Shown piece by piece: positions 1,503 to 10,711 of a stretch of 11,243 bases of DNA. The notes beneath the pieces were generated by a model that was not told where the DNA came from, did not search any database, and worked only from the letters and a program-made list of their open reading frames with translations. Source of the stretch: DAOVGU01 sp030637775 [NCBI: bacterium] (lineage in GTDB: Bacteria; Ratteibacteria; UBA8468); contig DAOWFY010000085.1 of the NCBI GenBank assembly GCA_030637775.1, forward strand, positions 1 to 11,243, written 5' to 3'. Numbering within the stretch: the stretch's first letter is position 1; each line of letters opens with the position of its first letter. The position numbers and the translations under genes were made by a program.

Positions 1503-2621
1503 TTACTCAAAGGCATTTTTATAGATAAGGAAGAAGTCGTTTGCTTTTAAGGGAATGGAGATTCGTAATAATGCTCTTTCACAATCCTTTATTGCTCTCC
1601 GGGACAAGAGCTTTAAGTCCTTCTTTTTCACCCCTACCTCTTTTAAGGTAAGGGGTAAATTTAAACGCCGGTTTAATTTTAAAAGAGATTCTTTTACTTC
1701 AGTAGTTCTAAGTATTTCCTTCAATTTTTCTTGATAAACTTTTTTCTTCCCCAGATAGTCCATCGTATAGGGAAGAAGGAGAGCATTAGCCGCTCCGTGC
1801 TGGAGCCCGTAATCAAGGGTAAGAGGATAGCCCATTCCATGAACAATAATTGTTCCCGTACGATTGATAACTATTCCGGCATAGAAAGCGGCTAAAGATA
1901 ATTTTTCCCTCAAGGAAGGATTGTTTTCCTTCATAAGAGGGGGTAAATATCTTTTAATCAGTTTTATTGCTTCTCGCGAGAAAATCTCTGTAAGAGGATT
2001 TGCATCTGTTGAAAGATAGCCTTCGATAGCATGAGAGAATGCATCCATTCCCGTAGAAGCGGTGAGATTTTTGGGTAGGGTTAAGGTGAGGGAAGGGTCA
2101 ATTATGGCAATTTTTGGCAAAATGGAAAAGGAACTGACAACCTTTTTTGTTTGTGCTTGCCAGTCGTTGATTACGGCATATCTTGTTACCTCACTTCCCG
2201 TGCCGGAGGTGGTTGGAATGGCTAAAACCGGTAAAGGAGGATTTTTGAGTCTTTCATTGCCAAAATATTCTCGCAAGCCACCGGGGTTCGTTGCCAAAAC
2301 TGCAATTCCTTTAGCCGTGTCTATGCTACTACCCCCTCCCAGACCGATGACGAAATCACATTTTTTTTCTCTGACCAATTTCCCTCCCTTCTCCACAGTT
2401 TCTACGGAGGGGTTCTCCTCTACATCACAGAATTCTATTATTTTTATACCATTGTTCAGGAGAATAGATTCAACCTTTTTTAAAAGTCCGCTCCTTATAA
2501 CAAAATGTTTGCCGGTGACTAAAAGAGCGCTCTTGCCTAAATTCTTTGCCTCCTTTAACTCTTTTAAACTTCCCTTTCCAAAATATATTTTGGTAGAAAG
2601 ATTAAAGAAATAATTATTCAT
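1503..2621 (-). CDS. Iron-containing alcohol dehydrogenase family protein
   Basis: This 372-residue NAD(P)-dependent group III dehydrogenase matches the usual family length (about 380). The N-terminal dinucleotide-binding domain carries G95-GGSSID-101 and the PTTSGTGSEVT block at 136-146. The C-terminal helical domain supplies the metal ligands D193 and H197 (DAFSHAIEGY), H261 (IVHGMGYPL) and H275 (GLQHGAANALLLPY). All four are present, so the enzyme should bind Fe2+ or another divalent metal. Its substrate cannot be read from sequence; the family includes butanol, 1,3-propanediol, lactaldehyde and hydroxyacid-type dehydrogenases. Its ATG overlaps the aroA stop as ATGA (2618-2621), so it is translationally coupled to aroA. 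It ends the operon. A role in aromatic metabolism, for example reduction of an aromatic ketone or aldehyde, is suggested only by position. Confidence 0.92.
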   Translation of the reverse strand: MNNYFFNLSTKIYFGKGSLKELKEAKNLGKSALLVTGKHFVIRSGLLKKVESILLNNGIKIIEFCDVEENPSVETVEKGGKLVREKKCDFVIGLGGGSSIDTAKGIAVLATNPGGLREYFGNERLKNPPLPVLAIPTTSGTGSEVTRYAVINDWQAQTKKVVSSFSILPKIAIIDPSLTLTLPKNLTASTGMDAFSHAIEGYLSTDANPLTEIFSREAIKLIKRYLPPLMKENNPSLREKLSLAAFYAGIVINRTGTIIVHGMGYPLTLDYGLQHGAANALLLPYTMDYLGKKKVYQEKLKEILRTTEVKESLLKLNRRLNLPLTLKEVGVKKKDLKLLSRRAIKDCERALLRISIPLKANDFFLIYKNAFE

Positions 2622-3904
2622 TGAATTAGTGTTTTTAACAGATCCTCAAATTCAGGAAAGGAGGTGCGGATACAATCGGTATCGTTAACTTTTGTCTTTC
2701 CGATAGCGCCCAATCCGGCAATCGTAAGAGCCATTGCGGTGCGGTGGTCGCCAAAACTTTCTACCGTTGCCCCCTTTAATTTCTTCCCGCCAGAAATCTC
2801 CATTCCATCCTTTCTCTCCTTTATCGCCGCACCCAATCTCTTCAACTGGCTCGCAATGGCATGAATTCGATCCGTCTCCTTAACCCGAAGTTCCCCCGCA
2901 TCCTTGATGATGGTTTTTCCTCGAGCAAAACAACCAATCACGGCTAAAATAGGAATTTCATCGATAATTCGAGGAATAATCTTTCCCCCTATTTTTATTC
3001 CTCTCAATTCATTGTTTCCCTCCACGATCAAATCAGCGATAGGTTCTCGGCAGACCTCCTTTATATTTTTAATCCATATTTTTACTCCCATTTTCTTCAG
3101 AACGTCAAGAAATCCCGTTCGAGTGGGGTTTACCCCTATACCTGAAATTTTAATCTTTGAACCATTTAAAATTGATGCGGCAGCGATAAAAAAGGCCGTC
3201 GAGGAGATATCACCGGGAATGAAAAATTCTTTTCCTGCAAACTCTTCCTTTCTAATACTTACAGATAGTCCCTGAATCTTTAAGGGAACTCCGAAATATT
3301 TTAACATTCGTTCAGTATGATCCCGCGAGCGGGAGGGTTCGGTAACCGTTGTTTTCCCTTCTGCATGGAGACCGGCTAAAAGAAGACAACTCTTTACCTG
3401 AGCCGAGGCTATTGGTGAACTATAGCGGATTCCTTGCAACTTCCCTCCTTTAATCCTTAAAGGAGGATAATTACCTTTATCAGCATCAATTTCTGCGCCC
3501 AATTTACGTAATGGCTCCACAATTCTTTCCATCGGTCGTTTTCTCAAGTATTTATCTCCGGTAAGAACGCTGGAGAAATTCTGAGCGGCAAGGAGACCGG
3601 CCAAGAGCCGCATCGTTGTTCCCGAATTTCCGCAGTCAAGACTTTTTTTGGGTTTTTTAAATGCAAATAATCCCTCTCCAAAAATTACTAAATTTTCTCT
3701 GCTTTCTTTTACTCTAATACCCAAATCTTTCAGGCAATTTAAGGTAGAAAAGCAATCTTCGCATTTAGAGATTCCTTTGATAATAGATTTTCCTTGGGCA
3801 AGGGAGGCAAAGATAAGAGCCCGATGGCTAATTGACTTATCACCCGGAACCCTAATAATTCCTTTCAGAGCTCTTACTTGATTGATAATAATGGAGTGCT
3901 TCAT
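2618..3904 (-). CDS. aroA: 3-phosphoshikimate 1-carboxyvinyltransferase (EPSP synthase, class II type)
   Basis: This cytosolic enzyme transfers enolpyruvyl from PEP to shikimate 3-phosphate, the sixth step to chorismate. Counting from the ATG at 3904 gives 428 residues, normal for the family. Visible motifs are PGDKSISHRA (20-29, with K23 and R28), DCGNSGTTMRLLAG (90-103), KRPMERIVEPL (122-132), R194-DHTERML, the catalytic D315 in IDEIP, E343-TDR and GDHRTAM (385-391). The GNSGTTMRLLAG and KRPMERI blocks are class II-like, unlike the class I E. coli form. An in-frame GTG at 3922 would add six residues. I prefer the ATG because homologues begin close to the RALKGIIRVPGDKS block. The gene starts inside the 3' end of the upstream activase gene, with a 53-base out-of-frame overlap, and shares ATGA with the dehydrogenase downstream. 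Confidence 0.96.
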   Translation of the reverse strand: MKHSIIINQVRALKGIIRVPGDKSISHRALIFASLAQGKSIIKGISKCEDCFSTLNCLKDLGIRVKESRENLVIFGEGLFAFKKPKKSLDCGNSGTTMRLLAGLLAAQNFSSVLTGDKYLRKRPMERIVEPLRKLGAEIDADKGNYPPLRIKGGKLQGIRYSSPIASAQVKSCLLLAGLHAEGKTTVTEPSRSRDHTERMLKYFGVPLKIQGLSVSIRKEEFAGKEFFIPGDISSTAFFIAAASILNGSKIKISGIGVNPTRTGFLDVLKKMGVKIWIKNIKEVCREPIADLIVEGNNELRGIKIGGKIIPRIIDEIPILAVIGCFARGKTIIKDAGELRVKETDRIHAIASQLKRLGAAIKERKDGMEISGGKKLKGATVESFGDHRTAMALTIAGLGAIGKTKVNDTDCIRTSFPEFEDLLKTLIQ

Positions 3905-4838
3905 TGCAACTATATTTCCCACACCGGCTACCTAAATATGCAATTGGTTTATCTTCAATTGATATTTTAGTTACTTCACAATTATTAGGGCAATCTTCAC
4001 AAATAAAGGTTTCTGATTTTACATCTAAATCCCTTATTGTAAAACCTCTAAAATTGGTTTTTTCTGGTTTGTTTTCCCTCGCTAAAATAGCCATGCCTAT
4101 CGCTCCCATTGACTCGCAATATCCAGGCACGATTACTCTATGATTGAGTTGTTCTTCCAAAGCTCTTATTAAAGCTTTATTGTTTGCGGTAGCTCCTTGA
4201 AAAACATACGGTGGTTTAAGTTCAAATGATTTTGCTAAAGTAAGATAATTGTTAATTAAGGCTCTGCAAACGCCCATTAAAATATCTTCGTTATTTGCAC
4301 CTTTATTTTTTCTTGAAACAACTGCTGATTGGCATAAAATTCCACATTTTCCGGGAAAACTCAGGTTTATTCTACTTCTTAGAGCTAAATCTCCGACATC
4401 TTCGATATTGATGTTTAAGGTTCTTGCGATGGATTCAATCATCGCCCCTGTTCCTGCTCCACAAATATTATTCATTATATAATTTCTCCAAATCCCATTC
4501 TCTAAAGTTATGATTTTACAGTCTTCTCCCCCGATGTCAAAAATAGTATTTACATCTGGATAGTAATGTAGAGTTCCAATTGTGTGAGCTAAAATTTCTG
4601 TTCTTGTTATATCCCCGCCCAGCGAAATCTTTGCAAATTCTCTTCCACTCCCCGCACAACCAACCGCTCTTATTTCTGTGTTGTTTAATTGCTTTTCTAT
4701 TTCTGCCAAACATTTTTTTATTGTTTCAATCAAACCTTTGTTCTGTAGATAAGATTGAGCTAAAATATTTGTATCATCATCTATAACTACCATCTTCGCA
4801 CTTACGCTTCCCACATCACAACCCAGATAGCCGTTCAT
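3852..4838 (-). CDS. Acyl-CoA dehydratase activase-type ATPase (BadF/BadG/BcrA/BcrD, HgdC-like)
   Basis: This 328-residue ASKHA-fold ATPase is related to HgdC, which uses ATP to push one electron into a partner dehydratase or reductase. Motifs are the phosphate-binding G6-CDVGSVSAKMV, G61-AGSGRE region, DIGGEDCK (101-108), N124-ICGAGTGAMIE and F161-PGKCGILCQSAVV. C126 and C165 match the two cysteines that, from each of two subunits, hold the bridging [4Fe-4S] cluster in HgdC. After the ATPase domain (about 1-255) there is a Cys-rich tail, C280-x2-C283-x3-C287, then GSRC306GKYSC311. As I recall it, this resembles the segment after the activase domain in large fused activase proteins. The start shares ATGA with the upstream partner gene, so the two are coupled. 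The final residues are encoded inside the aroA coding region. The sequence is visibly AT-rich. Confidence 0.93.
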   Translation of the reverse strand: MNGYLGCDVGSVSAKMVVIDDDTNILAQSYLQNKGLIETIKKCLAEIEKQLNNTEIRAVGCAGSGREFAKISLGGDITRTEILAHTIGTLHYYPDVNTIFDIGGEDCKIITLENGIWRNYIMNNICGAGTGAMIESIARTLNINIEDVGDLALRSRINLSFPGKCGILCQSAVVSRKNKGANNEDILMGVCRALINNYLTLAKSFELKPPYVFQGATANNKALIRALEEQLNHRVIVPGYCESMGAIGMAILARENKPEKTNFRGFTIRDLDVKSETFICEDCPNNCEVTKISIEDKPIAYLGSRCGKYSCNEALHYYQSSKSSERNY

Positions 4839-5791
4839 TTGACCCCCTTCTTTCTTTGTAACAATTCAACAGATGCTTCAAGTCTTGTATTAATATTAGC
4901 TTCAGAATTTGTCTCATCAATTTCAAACCTATATAACGGTAAATCTAACCTTTTAGCAGTTAAATCCATAATCATTTCTGAAGTCGTTTCAGGCATACAA
5001 CTTAAAGGCATTAAATGAATAACAGCATCAAAATTATGGTGTTTATAAAAATATAAAGCATGATGAGAAGGATCTCCGTGAGCCCTGAACATCCCCTTGT
5101 AATATTTTTTTGCTTCTTTTACAAACCTCATCGGCACTTCCCCTTTATATCCCCTTTTCAATTCATTGCTATATTTAACAAATGTATGGACATTAACTCC
5201 CCTATTTCTTAATTTATTAAAAATGTTGTAATTAATACTGCTTTCAACTACAGTATAGAATTCTCCGACAATTCCTATTCTTATCTTTTCCTGATCATTC
5301 CAATCAAAATATTCGTTCTTTTTTTCTTCTTGATGCATTAGTTTAACAGCCTTTATAAGTTCTCTGACAACTTTTGGATATGAATTTTTTGGATTTACCC
5401 TTTTAAAAGCTGAGAGAACACCAAAGAAAATAGTTCCCTTTCTCTCGATGAAGATCGTATCAAAATCATATCCTAAATCCTCGCATATCTTTTTTTGTAT
5501 CTCAAAATATTGCTGAAATCTGCAAGAACTCATACAAACGTTAGAGGTTCCAACACCTAAATAAGTTAATTTTATTCCTTTCCTTTTTGCCATTTCTAAA
5601 GCCTCAATAAAAGAACCTAAAGTAATTTTAAACGGGTAGCACATCATCGGTGAGCTATGCTTAACTCCTAATTTTATTGTTTTTTCTGTTATCGGTGGCG
5701 GTAACATTACTGCTACTCCTAAATTTTCTAATAGTTGTTTAATTATCTGAGTGTAGAAAGACATTCTTGGCAAGGTTACAACTCTTTTCAT
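4835..5791 (-). CDS. 2-hydroxyacyl-CoA dehydratase D-component-like protein (DUF2229/HgdB-related)
   Basis: This 318-residue protein has the two-lobed pattern of the activase-related / 2-hydroxyglutaryl-CoA dehydratase D-component superfamily. Conserved-looking cysteines are C51 (PMMCYPFK), C86 and C90 (NVCMSSCRF) and C265 (PLSCMPETTSE), which are candidate Fe-S ligands. The second lobe begins at about 170 with IRIGIVGEFY, and the C-terminus has D292-E-T followed by R303-LEASVELL, a pattern seen in HgdB-type subunits. Family members are cytosolic, oxygen-sensitive electron acceptors activated by an HgdC-type ATPase, which is the next gene. True dehydratases need two such subunits; only one is here, so the substrate and even dehydratase activity are uncertain. 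It starts 31 bases after the aroF stop in an AT-rich gap. Its AT content sets it apart from aroF. Confidence 0.85.
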   Translation of the reverse strand: MKRVVTLPRMSFYTQIIKQLLENLGVAVMLPPPITEKTIKLGVKHSSPMMCYPFKITLGSFIEALEMAKRKGIKLTYLGVGTSNVCMSSCRFQQYFEIQKKICEDLGYDFDTIFIERKGTIFFGVLSAFKRVNPKNSYPKVVRELIKAVKLMHQEEKKNEYFDWNDQEKIRIGIVGEFYTVVESSINYNIFNKLRNRGVNVHTFVKYSNELKRGYKGEVPMRFVKEAKKYYKGMFRAHGDPSHHALYFYKHHNFDAVIHLMPLSCMPETTSEMIMDLTAKRLDLPLYRFEIDETNSEANINTRLEASVELLQRKKGVK

Positions 5792-5821: not shown

Positions 5822-6835
5822 CTAGATAGTTCTTTTGAGGGGCTTGAGAATCCTTTTTACTTCTTTCATTAATCTCTGGAAATCCTTCGGGAGGAGAGAT
5901 TGGAAACCATCGGAAAGAGCCTCTTCTGGTTTAGGGTGAACCTCAATCATCAGACCGTCAGCTCCCGCGGCAATTGCGGCCTTACTCATTGGAAGAATAA
6001 GTTCCCTTCTTCCTGTTCCGTGGCTGGGATCGACAATAAGGGGAAGATGACTCAACTCCTTAATCAGGGGAACGGCGGAAAGGTCCAGGGTGAAACGGGT
6101 TGAATCTTCAAATGTTCTGATTCCTCTTTCGCAGAGAATAACATTATAGTTGTTCTGGGAGAGAATATACTCAGCCGCCATCAGGAGTTCCTCCACTTTT
6201 GCTGATATTCCCCGTTTAAGGAGAACCGGTTTCTTGCTTTTGCCCGCTTCCTTCAAGAGATCGAAGTTTTGCATATTTCTGGCCCCAATCTGAATAATGT
6301 CGCTATAACGGCTGACCAACTCCAGCTGACTTGTATCTCTGGCCTCGGTGACAACTAAAAGACCGGTTATCTTTCTTACCTCAGCCAGGTATTCCAGGCC
6401 TTTCTTTCCCAAACCCTGGAAGGAATAGGGACTTGTGCGCGGCTTAAAGGCACCACCACGTAGCATCACTGCTCCCGCCTCTTTTACAGCCTTTGCAGTT
6501 TCCAAAAGGCTCTCTTTACTCTCTACGGAACAGGGACCAGCAATCACTACTATCCTTTTTCCTCCAATCTCTAAATCCTTTACTTTAACGATCGTGTCTT
6601 CCTTTTTAAATTCGCGGCTTACTAATTTATATGGTTTAGAGATTGGAGTAATTGAGTCTACCACAAAGAAGCCCTCAAAAATCTCCCTTTTGGCGATGGC
6701 ATTTTCTCCAATCACCCCGATAACTGTCCTTTCCTCCCCCTTGGAGATGTGAGGGGTAAATCCCAATTCCTTAATCTTGCTACAGAGTTGCTCAATCCCT
6801 TTTTGCGTCACACCTTTCTTTAGAATGAGAATCAT
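5822..6835 (-). CDS. aroF: 3-deoxy-7-phosphoheptulonate (DAHP) synthase, type I-beta with N-terminal regulatory domain
   Basis: This enzyme condenses PEP and erythrose 4-phosphate, the first committed step to chorismate. From the ATG at 6835 it is 337 residues long, matching Thermotoga-type enzymes. Residues 1-68 form the small ferredoxin-like domain (MILILKKG..., GVIGE) that mediates Tyr/Phe feedback in characterised relatives. The barrel follows with AGPCSVES (99-106), [11 protein letters not shown] (131-141), GARNMQNF (184-191), [10 protein letters not shown] (269-278), IEVHP (297-301) and LSDG (307-310). Metal ligands C102, H272, E298 and D309 are all visible. A longer reading starts at a GTG at 6886 but adds residues encoded inside pheA with no homology. 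The ATG at 6835 has GGGAGGG 9 bases upstream. No chorismate mutase domain is fused here; that activity is in the upstream pheA. Confidence 0.96.
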
Positions 6836-6840
6836 TTTAG

Positions 6841-7908
6841 TCAACCCTCCCTTGGGTAAGAGCCAAAAATTTTCAGAAAGAGACACTGTCTTTCTAATTC
6901 TAAAAGCGCTTTTTTTACATCCTTATCGTCCTTATACCCCAGAAGATCAATAAAGAAAACATATTCCCAGGCCTTCCGTTTCGTAGGTCTTGATTCAATT
7001 TTGGTAAGATTAATACCGTACTTACGAAAGGGAGCCAACATATCGTAAAGAGCTCCTATCCTGTCCTTAATGGAAAAAAGAATGGAAGTCTTATCCTGAC
7101 CGCTCCTCTTGCTAAATTCTCTTCCCAGAACCAGAAACCTGGTAAAGTTATGGGAAGAATCTTCAATGTGGCGGGCAGTAACGTTGAGGCGATAGAGACT
7201 GGCGGCAACATCGGAAGCAATCGCTGCCGTTTTTAATTCCTGGGAGGCTAATTCTGCTGCTCTTGCTGTAGATTCGGTCTCTACCAACTTTGCTTCGGGA
7301 AGATTCTCCTCTAACCAGCGCCGACACTGAGCAATTGCCTGGGAATGGGAATACACCTTCTTTATCTCCTTTAACCTTCCTTGAGAAAGAAGATGATGAG
7401 AAATCTCCAGCATCACCTCGGCAGAGACTTTGAGATCAGAATCTAAAAACATATCCAATGTATGATTCACTACTCCTTCCGTAGAATTTTCTATTGGTAC
7501 GATTCCAAAATCTGCCTCTTTTTTCTCGACGGTGGCAAAGACCTCGCTAATACTTCTTACGGGAAGAAAGTCTGCCCTTTTTCCAAATACCTTCAGAGCA
7601 GTAAGATGGGTAAATGTGGCCGGTGGTCCCAAATAGACGACACTTAATTTCCTCTGTAAATTACGAAAGCTGTTCAGGAGTCCTTCAACAATCTCGGAGA
7701 GAGTGCTATCGCTCAGAGGTCCTTGATTTCTCTTTAGCAGATGTTTTAGAATTTTCTTCTCTCGCGCAGGATCGTAAAAACTCTTCCCCTCCCTTTGCTT
7801 AATCTTGACAATTTCCAGAACCCTTTTTGCACGTTGGTTAAGAAGATTAAGTAATTTTAGGTCGAGATCATCGATCTCTTCTCTTGATTTTTTTAAATTT
7901 TTCGCCAT
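6841..7908 (-). CDS. pheA: Bifunctional chorismate mutase / prephenate dehydratase (P-protein)
   Basis: This 355-residue protein converts chorismate to prephenate and then phenylpyruvate, the phenylalanine precursor. Three domains are visible. An AroQ-class chorismate mutase helical domain (about 5-90) has REEIDDLDLKLLNLLNQRA and the YDPAREKKIL block. The prephenate dehydratase domain (about 90-262) has YLGPPATFTH, VPIENSTEGVV (137-147) and the catalytic-type NFTRF (254-258). The C-terminal ACT domain (about 272-350) has DRIGALYDML and KIESRP (303-308), which bind phenylalanine in characterised enzymes, so feedback inhibition by Phe is expected. The length is typical of P-proteins. The start overlaps the aroQ stop by 16 bases, so translation is probably coupled. 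No tyrosine-branch dehydrogenase is in the operon. Confidence 0.96.
   Translation of the reverse strand: MAKNLKKSREEIDDLDLKLLNLLNQRAKRVLEIVKIKQREGKSFYDPAREKKILKHLLKRNQGPLSDSTLSEIVEGLLNSFRNLQRKLSVVYLGPPATFTHLTALKVFGKRADFLPVRSISEVFATVEKKEADFGIVPIENSTEGVVNHTLDMFLDSDLKVSAEVMLEISHHLLSQGRLKEIKKVYSHSQAIAQCRRWLEENLPEAKLVETESTARAAELASQELKTAAIASDVAASLYRLNVTARHIEDSSHNFTRFLVLGREFSKRSGQDKTSILFSIKDRIGALYDMLAPFRKYGINLTKIESRPTKRKAWEYVFFIDLLGYKDDKDVKKALLELERQCLFLKIFGSYPREG
6845..6851 (-). promoter_or_regulatory. Ribosome binding site deciding the aroF start
   Basis: GGGAGGG on the minus strand lies 9 bases before the ATG at 6835, overlapping the last codons of pheA. It selects this start over the in-frame GTG at 6886. 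Confidence 0.75.
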
Positions 7909-9972: not shown

Positions 9973-10437
9973 TCATTCTAACTTATCCCAGAAATCTGAA
10001 ACAGCCTTCTTTATATCACTCCATAGTGATTCAATATCATCTATCAACTCCACCATCTTTTCACCTTTTAATTGAAAACCATATCCACTTATAAATCGAT
10101 GTCTAAAATTTCTATAGGGATATAACCTACTTACTATATCTTGGTTAAGTATAGGAATCTTCCCTTCAGGAGGATTGAATGATAAAGCGAGAAGTTCTTT
10201 ATGCCAACTTTCTCCTTTAGGCACAGTCAAGTAGTACTTTTTGGTTATGCGCTTTAAAATATTCTCTATTCCATTATAAAAATTCATTAAATAAGTCCCC
10301 ATTGCTGGTTCTGTAGAATAATCTTCTTTATGGGAATCAAATTTGCTTACGACTTTAAAAAGTTTCTCTAAGGCTTCTTCAATTGCCTTTTCCTCATCTG
10401 ATACATCTTCTCTTAATTCCTTATACTTTTCTTTCAT
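9973..10437 (-). CDS. HEPN-domain (HepT-like) protein, putative RNase toxin of an MNT-HEPN module
   Basis: This 154-residue, mostly helical and charged protein begins with a probable coiled helix (about 14-34). W78-H79-K-E-L-L and the late motif around 108-121 (YRNFRHRFISGYGF) resemble HepT-like proteins. In HepT the motif is R-x4-H-x-Y, where Arg and His cleave RNA and the Tyr is AMPylated by the MNT partner. Here R112-x4-S117-x-Y119 has that exact spacing but Ser in place of His, with H113 next to the Arg. RNase activity is therefore doubtful, while the modifiable Tyr is kept. The start overlaps the nucleotidyltransferase gene by 17 bases, the usual MNT-HEPN arrangement. It ends 4 bases before aroK. 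Family assignment is from pattern memory, without a profile search. Confidence 0.75.
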   Translation of the reverse strand: MKEKYKELREDVSDEEKAIEEALEKLFKVVSKFDSHKEDYSTEPAMGTYLMNFYNGIENILKRITKKYYLTVPKGESWHKELLALSFNPPEGKIPILNQDIVSRLYPYRNFRHRFISGYGFQLKGEKMVELIDDIESLWSDIKKAVSDFWDKLE

Positions 10438-10711
10438 ATATAACCTTCCCCTTAGATAAAATTCTTTTATAAAGATGCTCTCTTACATCGTCCAAATCAA
10501 CTATATCCACTTCATCATCTACCACCATGGAAACTTTCCCATAATATTTAAAAAATTCTCTGGACTTAATCCCGGAGACTGCTATATCAACATCCTGAGC
10601 CGATTTAATATCATCAAGACATGAACCAAATAATAGCACTTTCTTTGCACCAAATCCTTTACTAATACCAACAATCTTATCTAATTCTCTTTTTAAAACT
10701 GCTCTTTTCAT
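10421..10711 (-). CDS. Minimal nucleotidyltransferase (MNT), MntA-like antitoxin
   Basis: This 96-residue protein is a compact nucleotidyltransferase domain of the DNA polymerase beta superfamily. The signature is FGS (28-30), then nine residues, then D40-V-D42, with the third carboxylate at D69 in EVDIVDLDD. All three metal-binding acids are present, so catalysis is plausible. In characterised MNT-HEPN modules the MNT protein adds AMP units to the HEPN toxin tyrosine and neutralises it. The next gene is HEPN-like and overlaps by 17 bases, which supports that role. A good ribosome binding site precedes the ATG. AT content is higher than in the aro genes. Confidence 0.88.
   Translation of the reverse strand: MKRAVLKRELDKIVGISKGFGAKKVLLFGSCLDDIKSAQDVDIAVSGIKSREFFKYYGKVSMVVDDEVDIVDLDDVREHLYKRILSKGKVIYERKV

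What the first reader, a model, noticed from the sequence alone, without database searches (positions are those of the whole stretch)
3852..5791. ATP-dependent dehydratase/reductase-type pair embedded in an aromatic amino acid operon
An HgdC-like activase and a D-component-like Fe-S protein sit between aroF and aroA, coupled by ATGA. In many bacteria tyrA occupies the aroF-aroA interval. The pair belongs to a superfamily that does difficult low-potential reductions or dehydrations (2-hydroxyacyl-CoA dehydratases, benzoyl-CoA reductase, double-cubane proteins), none of which is a standard step in making aromatic amino acids. It may be a novel aromatic-linked enzyme, or an insertion that exploits the operon promoter.
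Basis: partly seen in the sequence, partly recalled or inferred. Interest (0 to 1): 0.62.

Follow-up and report, generated by a model that had tools for sequence, protein, structure and literature searches.

The report
Acquired Fe-S reductase pair among aromatic genes
Two genes for a self-contained, ATP-driven iron-sulfur reductase have dropped into an aromatic amino acid gene cluster in one genus of an uncultured bacterium; they look like working passengers on that cluster rather than part of its pathway, but they belong to a little-studied two-gene branch of a chemically powerful enzyme family.

Summary
Minus strand, 11-kb MAG contig: aroK-aroB-aroQ-pheA-aroF-[HGD-like, 318 aa]-[activase, 328 aa]-aroA-Fe-ADH, tightly packed. 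The pair belongs to the BCR/HAD/DCCP superfamily. The aromatic-enzyme reading is not supported. In the searched genomes the aro-linked pair was found in one genus only (two species). In 12 other genomes of the class aroF is followed directly by aroA. tyrA lies on another contig in the sister species (none was found in the 83.5%-complete window genome). The pair has 31.8/35.4% GC against 39.5-45.2% for the aro genes and Fe-ADH beside it, and third-position GC below all 118 usable sampled ORFs. Both genes fall in a supported two-gene clade found sporadically in other bacteria and on one IMG/VR contig, in differing surroundings. Two looser relatives do sit beside trpE and a trpB-like gene; I judge this within chance. 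dN/dS of 0.29 and 0.17 suggests function. Best reading: a horizontally acquired, self-sufficient ATP-driven reductase, working like DCCP/DCCP-R but with one conserved three-cysteine site, riding on the aro operon. Substrate unknown. Interest lies in the uncharacterised two-gene clade, not in aromatic biosynthesis.

The parts
4835..5791 (-). HGD-like (DUF2229-type) Fe-S protein, 318 aa; conserved Cys51, Cys90, Cys265
   Evidence: PF09989 2.7e-12, PF06050 7.1e-7; Cys51 in 18 of 18 rows that reach it, Cys90 and Cys265 in 19 of 19
3852..4838 (-). HgdC-type activase (ASKHA ATPase), 328 aa; Cys126 and Cys165, plus a C-terminal four-Cys segment (280, 283, 287, 306)
   Evidence: PF01869 3.8e-40; TIGR00241 181 bits, cut-off 125.4; 1hux_A 4.8e-33; Cys126, 165, 283, 287, 306 invariant and Cys280 nearly so in 15 rows
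5822..6886 (-). aroF (DAHP synthase), upstream neighbour, 30 bp before HGD
   Evidence: TIGR01361 414.6 bits; gap
2618..3922 (-). aroA (EPSP synthase), downstream neighbour; probable ATG at 3904, inside the activase ORF
   Evidence: TIGR01356 449.7 bits
1503..2621 (-). Fe-ADH, end of the operon; also near aroA/aroF in other families of the class
   Evidence: PF00465 2.9e-54; layouts
6841..7908 (-). pheA (chorismate mutase / prephenate dehydratase)
   Evidence: PF00800, PF01817, PF01842
7893..9968 (-). aroQ, aroB, aroK, rest of the aro operon

Best explanation
The two genes are a horizontally acquired, self-sufficient two-component reductase that entered the aroF-aroA junction in the ancestor of this genus and is read from the aro operon. 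Inferred mechanism: the activase dimer carries one intersubunit [4Fe-4S] cluster (Cys126, Cys165), is reduced by ferredoxin or flavodoxin, and uses ATP to push a low-potential electron into a [4Fe-4S] cluster held by Cys51, Cys90 and Cys265 of the HGD-like protein, whose fourth iron site binds and reduces a small substrate. It works like DCCP/DCCP-R (one catalytic gene, one reductase gene, no further partner), but with a HadB/BzdO-type three-Cys site. Shown: family, gene order, conserved Cys, composition, selection, distribution, separate clade. Inferred: clusters, homodimer, co-transcription, electron donor, absence of a role in aromatic synthesis. Substrate unknown.
For: Superfamily: Pfam; a 19-row profile finds HadC 3o3m_B E=1e-6 and DCCP 7yyl/6eno E=7.5e-6/1.9e-5 over the C-terminal Cys region; the 12 best Foldseek hits are all DCCP, HAD or BzdNO, 11 at E<=0.001. 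Insertion: aroF is followed directly by aroA in 12 class genomes; HGD GC 31.8% is below all 118 usable sampled ORFs, GC3 of both genes (0.263, 0.254) likewise, activase GC 35.4% above only 5 of 118 (the one lower row is a masked stretch). The slot after aroF also holds a GFO/IDH/MocA oxidoreductase, a glycoside hydrolase or Fe-ADH in other genera. Self-sufficiency: 8-row two-gene clade in both trees (HGD 95/93, activase 100/99); among its loci the only shared neighbours are those of the two same-genus species. Function: dN/dS 0.286 and 0.172 beside 0.214 for aroA and 0.157 for Fe-ADH. HGD has one match in the window genome at E<=0.001, PF01869 one over its cut-off.
Against: Single-sequence phmmer of the HGD-like protein against PDB finds no superfamily member (best: a glutaredoxin, E=0.0073). 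The fold model is poor (pLDDT 51.7, pTM 0.45; TM 0.31-0.38). trpE directly after a looser HGD relative (L147) and a trpB-like gene before another (L196) leave room for an aromatic theme. The pair is kept under purifying selection inside the operon. The genus is known from two incomplete genomes. Promoter-like matches inside the pair are no more numerous than in shuffles, so an own promoter is neither shown nor excluded. Low GC alone can arise without transfer.
Confidence: 0.62

Rival explanations
1. A new step or branch of aromatic metabolism: the pair reduces or dehydrates a shikimate-, chorismate- or prephenate-derived compound made by the operon.
For: Tight co-directional packing with aro genes kept in two species; purifying selection; looser relatives beside trpE (L147) and a trpB-like gene (L196).
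Against: No aro linkage in the 35 other loci read; absent from aroF-aroA junctions of 12 class genomes; two-gene relatives stand in unrelated contexts, even between two species of one genus (G012, G029); aroE and, in the sister species, tyrA are present elsewhere.
Confidence: 0.1
2. A repair or activation factor: the ATP-driven electron is used to reactivate a metalloenzyme or corrinoid rather than to turn over a metabolite.
For: No conserved metabolic neighbour; a housekeeping or stress role would explain changing contexts. The activase also matches methanogenesis marker 15 (TIGR03286, 110.6 bits, cut-off 455.75, so not a member).
Against: Sporadic distribution is poor for a repair factor of a core enzyme; no client gene recurs.
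Confidence: 0.15
3. A catabolic 2-hydroxyacyl-CoA dehydratase or class I benzoyl-CoA reductase.
For: Superfamily membership.
Against: These need two different catalytic subunits (PMC11971306, passages read); only one is found at the locus and in the genome; no CoA ligase, CoA-transferase or enoyl-CoA gene in the window.
Confidence: 0.08
4. Decaying leftovers of an insertion.
For: Foreign composition; the activase C-terminus differs between the two species.
Against: Open frames in both species and dN/dS of 0.17-0.29.
Confidence: 0.05

Closest known systems
Double-cubane cluster protein and its reductase (DCCP/DCCP-R; PDB 6eno, 7yyl)
   Same: Two-gene system of one catalytic subunit plus an HgdC-type activase; best Foldseek hits; activase matches 7yyl_E, E=2.4e-20.
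   Different: DCCP chains are 421-422 aa, here 318; the [8Fe-9S] cluster uses six Cys (PMC11971306, section 8, for BzdN), here three are conserved.
2-hydroxyacyl-CoA dehydratases (HadBC/HadI, HgdAB/HgdC)
   Same: Activase 1hux and 4eht matches at E<=4.4e-32; three-Cys site; C-terminal Cys aligned with 3o3m_B.
   Different: Two different catalytic subunits there, one here; no dehydratase pathway genes near.
Class I benzoyl-CoA reductase (BzdNO, 8s02)
   Same: Fold hit; BzdO uses three Cys for [4Fe-4S]-OH2 (PMC11971306).
   Different: Heterodimer with an [8Fe-9S] partner subunit; CoA-ester substrate.
Three-gene clusters with two DUF2229/HGD-type genes plus activase (e.g. L149, L153, L155, L162)
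   Same: Homologous longer HGD-like gene and activase with the same C-terminal Cys segment.
   Different: A second HGD-like subunit; separate clade in both trees.

Membership tests
BCR/HAD/DCCP superfamily | HGD-D/DUF2229-type catalytic protein | tested here: met
   PF09989 and PF06050 over cut-off; profile and fold hits; single-sequence PDB search negative
BCR/HAD/DCCP superfamily | ASKHA activase with two cluster Cys | tested here: met
   TIGR00241 over cut-off; Cys126 and Cys165 invariant in 15 rows; their ligand role is recalled from HgdC, not tested
DCCP | One catalytic gene plus one activase gene | tested here: met
   the genome is 83.5% complete
DCCP | Six Cys for [8Fe-9S] | tested here: not met
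   Window protein has five Cys, three conserved
2-hydroxyacyl-CoA dehydratase / class I BCR | Two different catalytic subunits | tested here: not met
   One HGD match in the genome at E<=0.001, none other in the window
2-hydroxyacyl-CoA dehydratase / class I BCR | CoA-ester substrate | not testable with these tools
   Needs biochemistry
Aromatic amino acid pathway enzyme | Linkage to aro genes in distant lineages | tested here: not met
   0 of 35 other loci with aroA/F/B/K/Q/C/E, pheA or tyrA on the stretch read; trpE and a trpB-like gene beside two of them
Aromatic amino acid pathway enzyme | Replaces a missing step (tyrA, aroE) | tested here: inconclusive
   aroE present in the window genome; tyrA in the sister species but not detected in the window genome

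The most novel reading that the evidence does not exclude
The short two-gene clade is a new class of ATP-driven reductase, and in this genus it has been recruited to act on a product of its host operon, so that the low-potential chemistry of benzoyl-CoA reductase relatives is used on a free, non-CoA aromatic-pathway compound.
Probability: 0.08. Interest if true: 0.78.

Novelty: new variant of a known kind. Interest (0 to 1): 0.36.

Why it matters
The BCR/HAD superfamily performs some of the most demanding ATP-driven reductions known, and the physiological role of its two-gene DCCP type is unclear (PMC11971306, passages). A compact two-gene branch with a single three-Cys site, found sporadically, under selection and without a fixed partner, is a small, expressible target for finding new reductive chemistry. 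For annotation the lesson is that operon position misleads here: the pair is best not named an aromatic biosynthesis enzyme.

Tried and rejected
tyrA replacement: rejected for the genus, since the sister species has PF02153 on another contig. Fe-ADH as a replacement for aroE: aroE found in 31 of 35 class genomes, the window genome included. Defence role: no PADLOC or PHROGs family for either protein of the pair. Plasmid cargo: tblastn of the HGD-like protein against 72,556 plasmid records found one weak relative (26.4%, Monoglobus). Viral scans: one HGD relative (L174), three activase relatives that I did not study further (L175-L177), none with the narrower profile A1. Structure: the A6 model is too poor to place the ligands. 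Promoter and terminator scan: no more matches than in shuffles. Neighbour themes: 104 neighbours (100-720 aa, up to two mechanical ORFs on either side of 35 loci) gave no aromatic family among the 25 of 127 families shown; GGDEF led with 5 members.

Literature: PMC11971306 (passages and section 8 read), PMC7306483 and PMC5322559 (passages), the rest seen as search listings. The two primary DCCP papers are not held. Full-text search for DUF2229, COG3580, COG3581 or PF09989 listed two papers, not read.

Full report
What is there. The window is one whole contig (C90, 11,243 bp) of a 1.4-Mb, 83.5%-complete MAG. Its minus strand carries aroK, aroB, aroQ, pheA, aroF, an HGD-like gene, an activase gene, aroA and an Fe-ADH. 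The HGD-like gene starts 30 bp after aroF and overlaps the activase by ATGA.

Family. The activase matches HgdC (1hux, E=4.8e-33), HadI (4eht, E=4.4e-32) and DCCP-R (7yyl_E, E=2.4e-20). The HGD-like protein alone finds no superfamily member in PDB (best a glutaredoxin, E=0.0073). A profile of 19 relatives finds HadC and DCCP at E=1e-6 to 1.9e-5, over about 65 C-terminal positions where Cys265 aligns with a Cys of those proteins. A three-sequence AlphaFold2 model is weak (pLDDT 51.7), yet its 12 best Foldseek matches are all DCCP, HAD or BzdNO chains, 11 of them at E<=0.001, with low TM-scores of 0.31-0.38.

Anatomy. Cys90 and Cys265 are invariant in 19 rows, and Cys51 is present in all 18 rows that reach it; within the two-gene clade the same holds for 8, 8 and 7 rows. 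Three Cys is the BzdO/HadB pattern ([4Fe-4S] with water or hydroxide as fourth ligand), while the [8Fe-9S] cluster of BzdN and DCCP has six further irons held by Cys (PMC11971306, section 8). In the activase Cys126, 165, 283, 287 and 306 are invariant in 15 rows and Cys280 nearly so; the last four form a C-terminal segment whose role I did not test.

Distribution of the linkage. The sister species (L021, isolate CSMAG_1143) has HGD-activase-aroA-FeADH, its contig ending inside HGD. In the rest of the class, aroF is followed by aroA in 12 genomes, by Fe-ADH in two and by another gene in twelve; two contigs end there. Of those other genes, four scanned are GFO/IDH/MocA oxidoreductases and one a glycoside hydrolase, so the slot behind aroF varies. 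In the sister genus (G002) the aroF contig ends, and the aroA contig begins, in the same roughly 270-bp repeat bounded by inverted repeats (96% over 144 bp). This suggests aroF-repeat-aroA without the pair, and G002 has no HGD match (77% complete); two repeat copies round an unseen insert are not excluded.

Wider search. HGD-type relatives were found in 24 of 386 genomes at E<=1e-20, 7 of 285 and 4 of 39 at E<=1e-30, and 5 of 384 at E<=1e-45, all five already known; these sets overlap. I read 35 loci outside the genus, from 32 genomes and one IMG/VR contig, some on pieces of only 3-7 kb. None carries aroA, aroF, pheA, aroQ, aroB, aroK, aroC, tyrA or aroE on the stretch read (phmmer E<=1e-8). 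Against my reading, L147 has trpE 6 bp after a looser, longer HGD relative, and L196 has a trpB-like gene just before two HGD-like genes. With about 1% of genes in aromatic amino acid synthesis (my estimate) and 104 neighbours, about one such case is expected by chance. Neither belongs to the two-gene clade.

Phylogeny. HGD-like proteins from the window, its sister, three genomes of family f3, G290, G585 and the IMG/VR contig form one clade (95/93), and their activases form the same clade (100/99). Long branches occur, and the G290-G585 join in the HGD tree carries a long-branch warning, so inner order is unsure. Four further short HGD-like proteins (G318, G406, G432, G493) join next in the HGD tree, but their activases do not. 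Within the eight loci, the only homologous neighbours (E<=1e-5) were aroA and Fe-ADH of the two same-genus species; G012 and G029, of one genus, differ in context.

Origin and function. HGD GC is 31.8% and activase GC 35.4%, while aro genes and Fe-ADH have 39.5-45.2%. Of 119 ORFs from 20 sampled contigs one is a masked stretch; of the other 118 none has GC at or below HGD's, none has GC3 at or below 0.263, and five have GC at or below the activase's. The sister's pair is alike (30.8 and 34.8% against 41.6% for aroA). dN/dS between the two species is 0.286 (HGD), 0.172 (activase), 0.214 (aroA) and 0.157 (Fe-ADH). So the pair looks acquired before the species split and kept under selection.

Nothing obvious is replaced. 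PF02153 (TyrA) occurs in 30 of 35 class genomes, including the sister species on another contig; the window genome gave none, which may be incompleteness. Shikimate dehydrogenase occurs in 31 of 35, including the window genome. The pair is the only HGD match at E<=0.001 and the only activase over the PF01869 cut-off in the window genome.

Verdict. The best model is an acquired DCCP-like two-gene reductase with a three-Cys site. What would interest a specialist is the uncharacterised two-gene clade: a full-text search for its family names listed only two papers.

Noticed in passing
window 1503-2621 and layouts: An Fe-ADH sits in the aro operon of many class members: directly after aroA or aroF in 8 genomes (G000, G001, G018, G017, G027, G012, G026, G007), with one gene between in 6 (f5), with two or three between in 2 (G033, G023). 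Its role is unknown; aroE is present elsewhere.
   Followed up: partly
L208:5-272; L057:3274-3414: A roughly 268-bp repeat with inverted ends lies between aroF and aroA of G002; matches in 7 of 35 class genomes (some only terminal pieces), and 80.7% identity in L156 from a genome outside the class.
   Followed up: partly
L147:81-2867: trpE follows a longer HGD-like gene by 6 bp on a 5.4-kb contig; an HTH-cupin regulator is nearby.
   Followed up: partly
L174:2193-4014: An IMG/VR contig carries the same short two-gene pair (HGD-like 299 aa, activase 309 aa), near a protease-like and a radical-SAM-like gene known from phage families.
   Followed up: partly
window 9973-10711 and 1-1385: HepT-like and nucleotidyltransferase genes (toxin-antitoxin type) precede aroK; HSDR_N-type and DUF559 genes follow Fe-ADH. 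The sister species has Mrr-type and HEPN genes in the latter place.
   Followed up: no
window 3852-3910: The activase lacks the stop seen in its sister and runs about 50 bp into aroA.
   Followed up: partly
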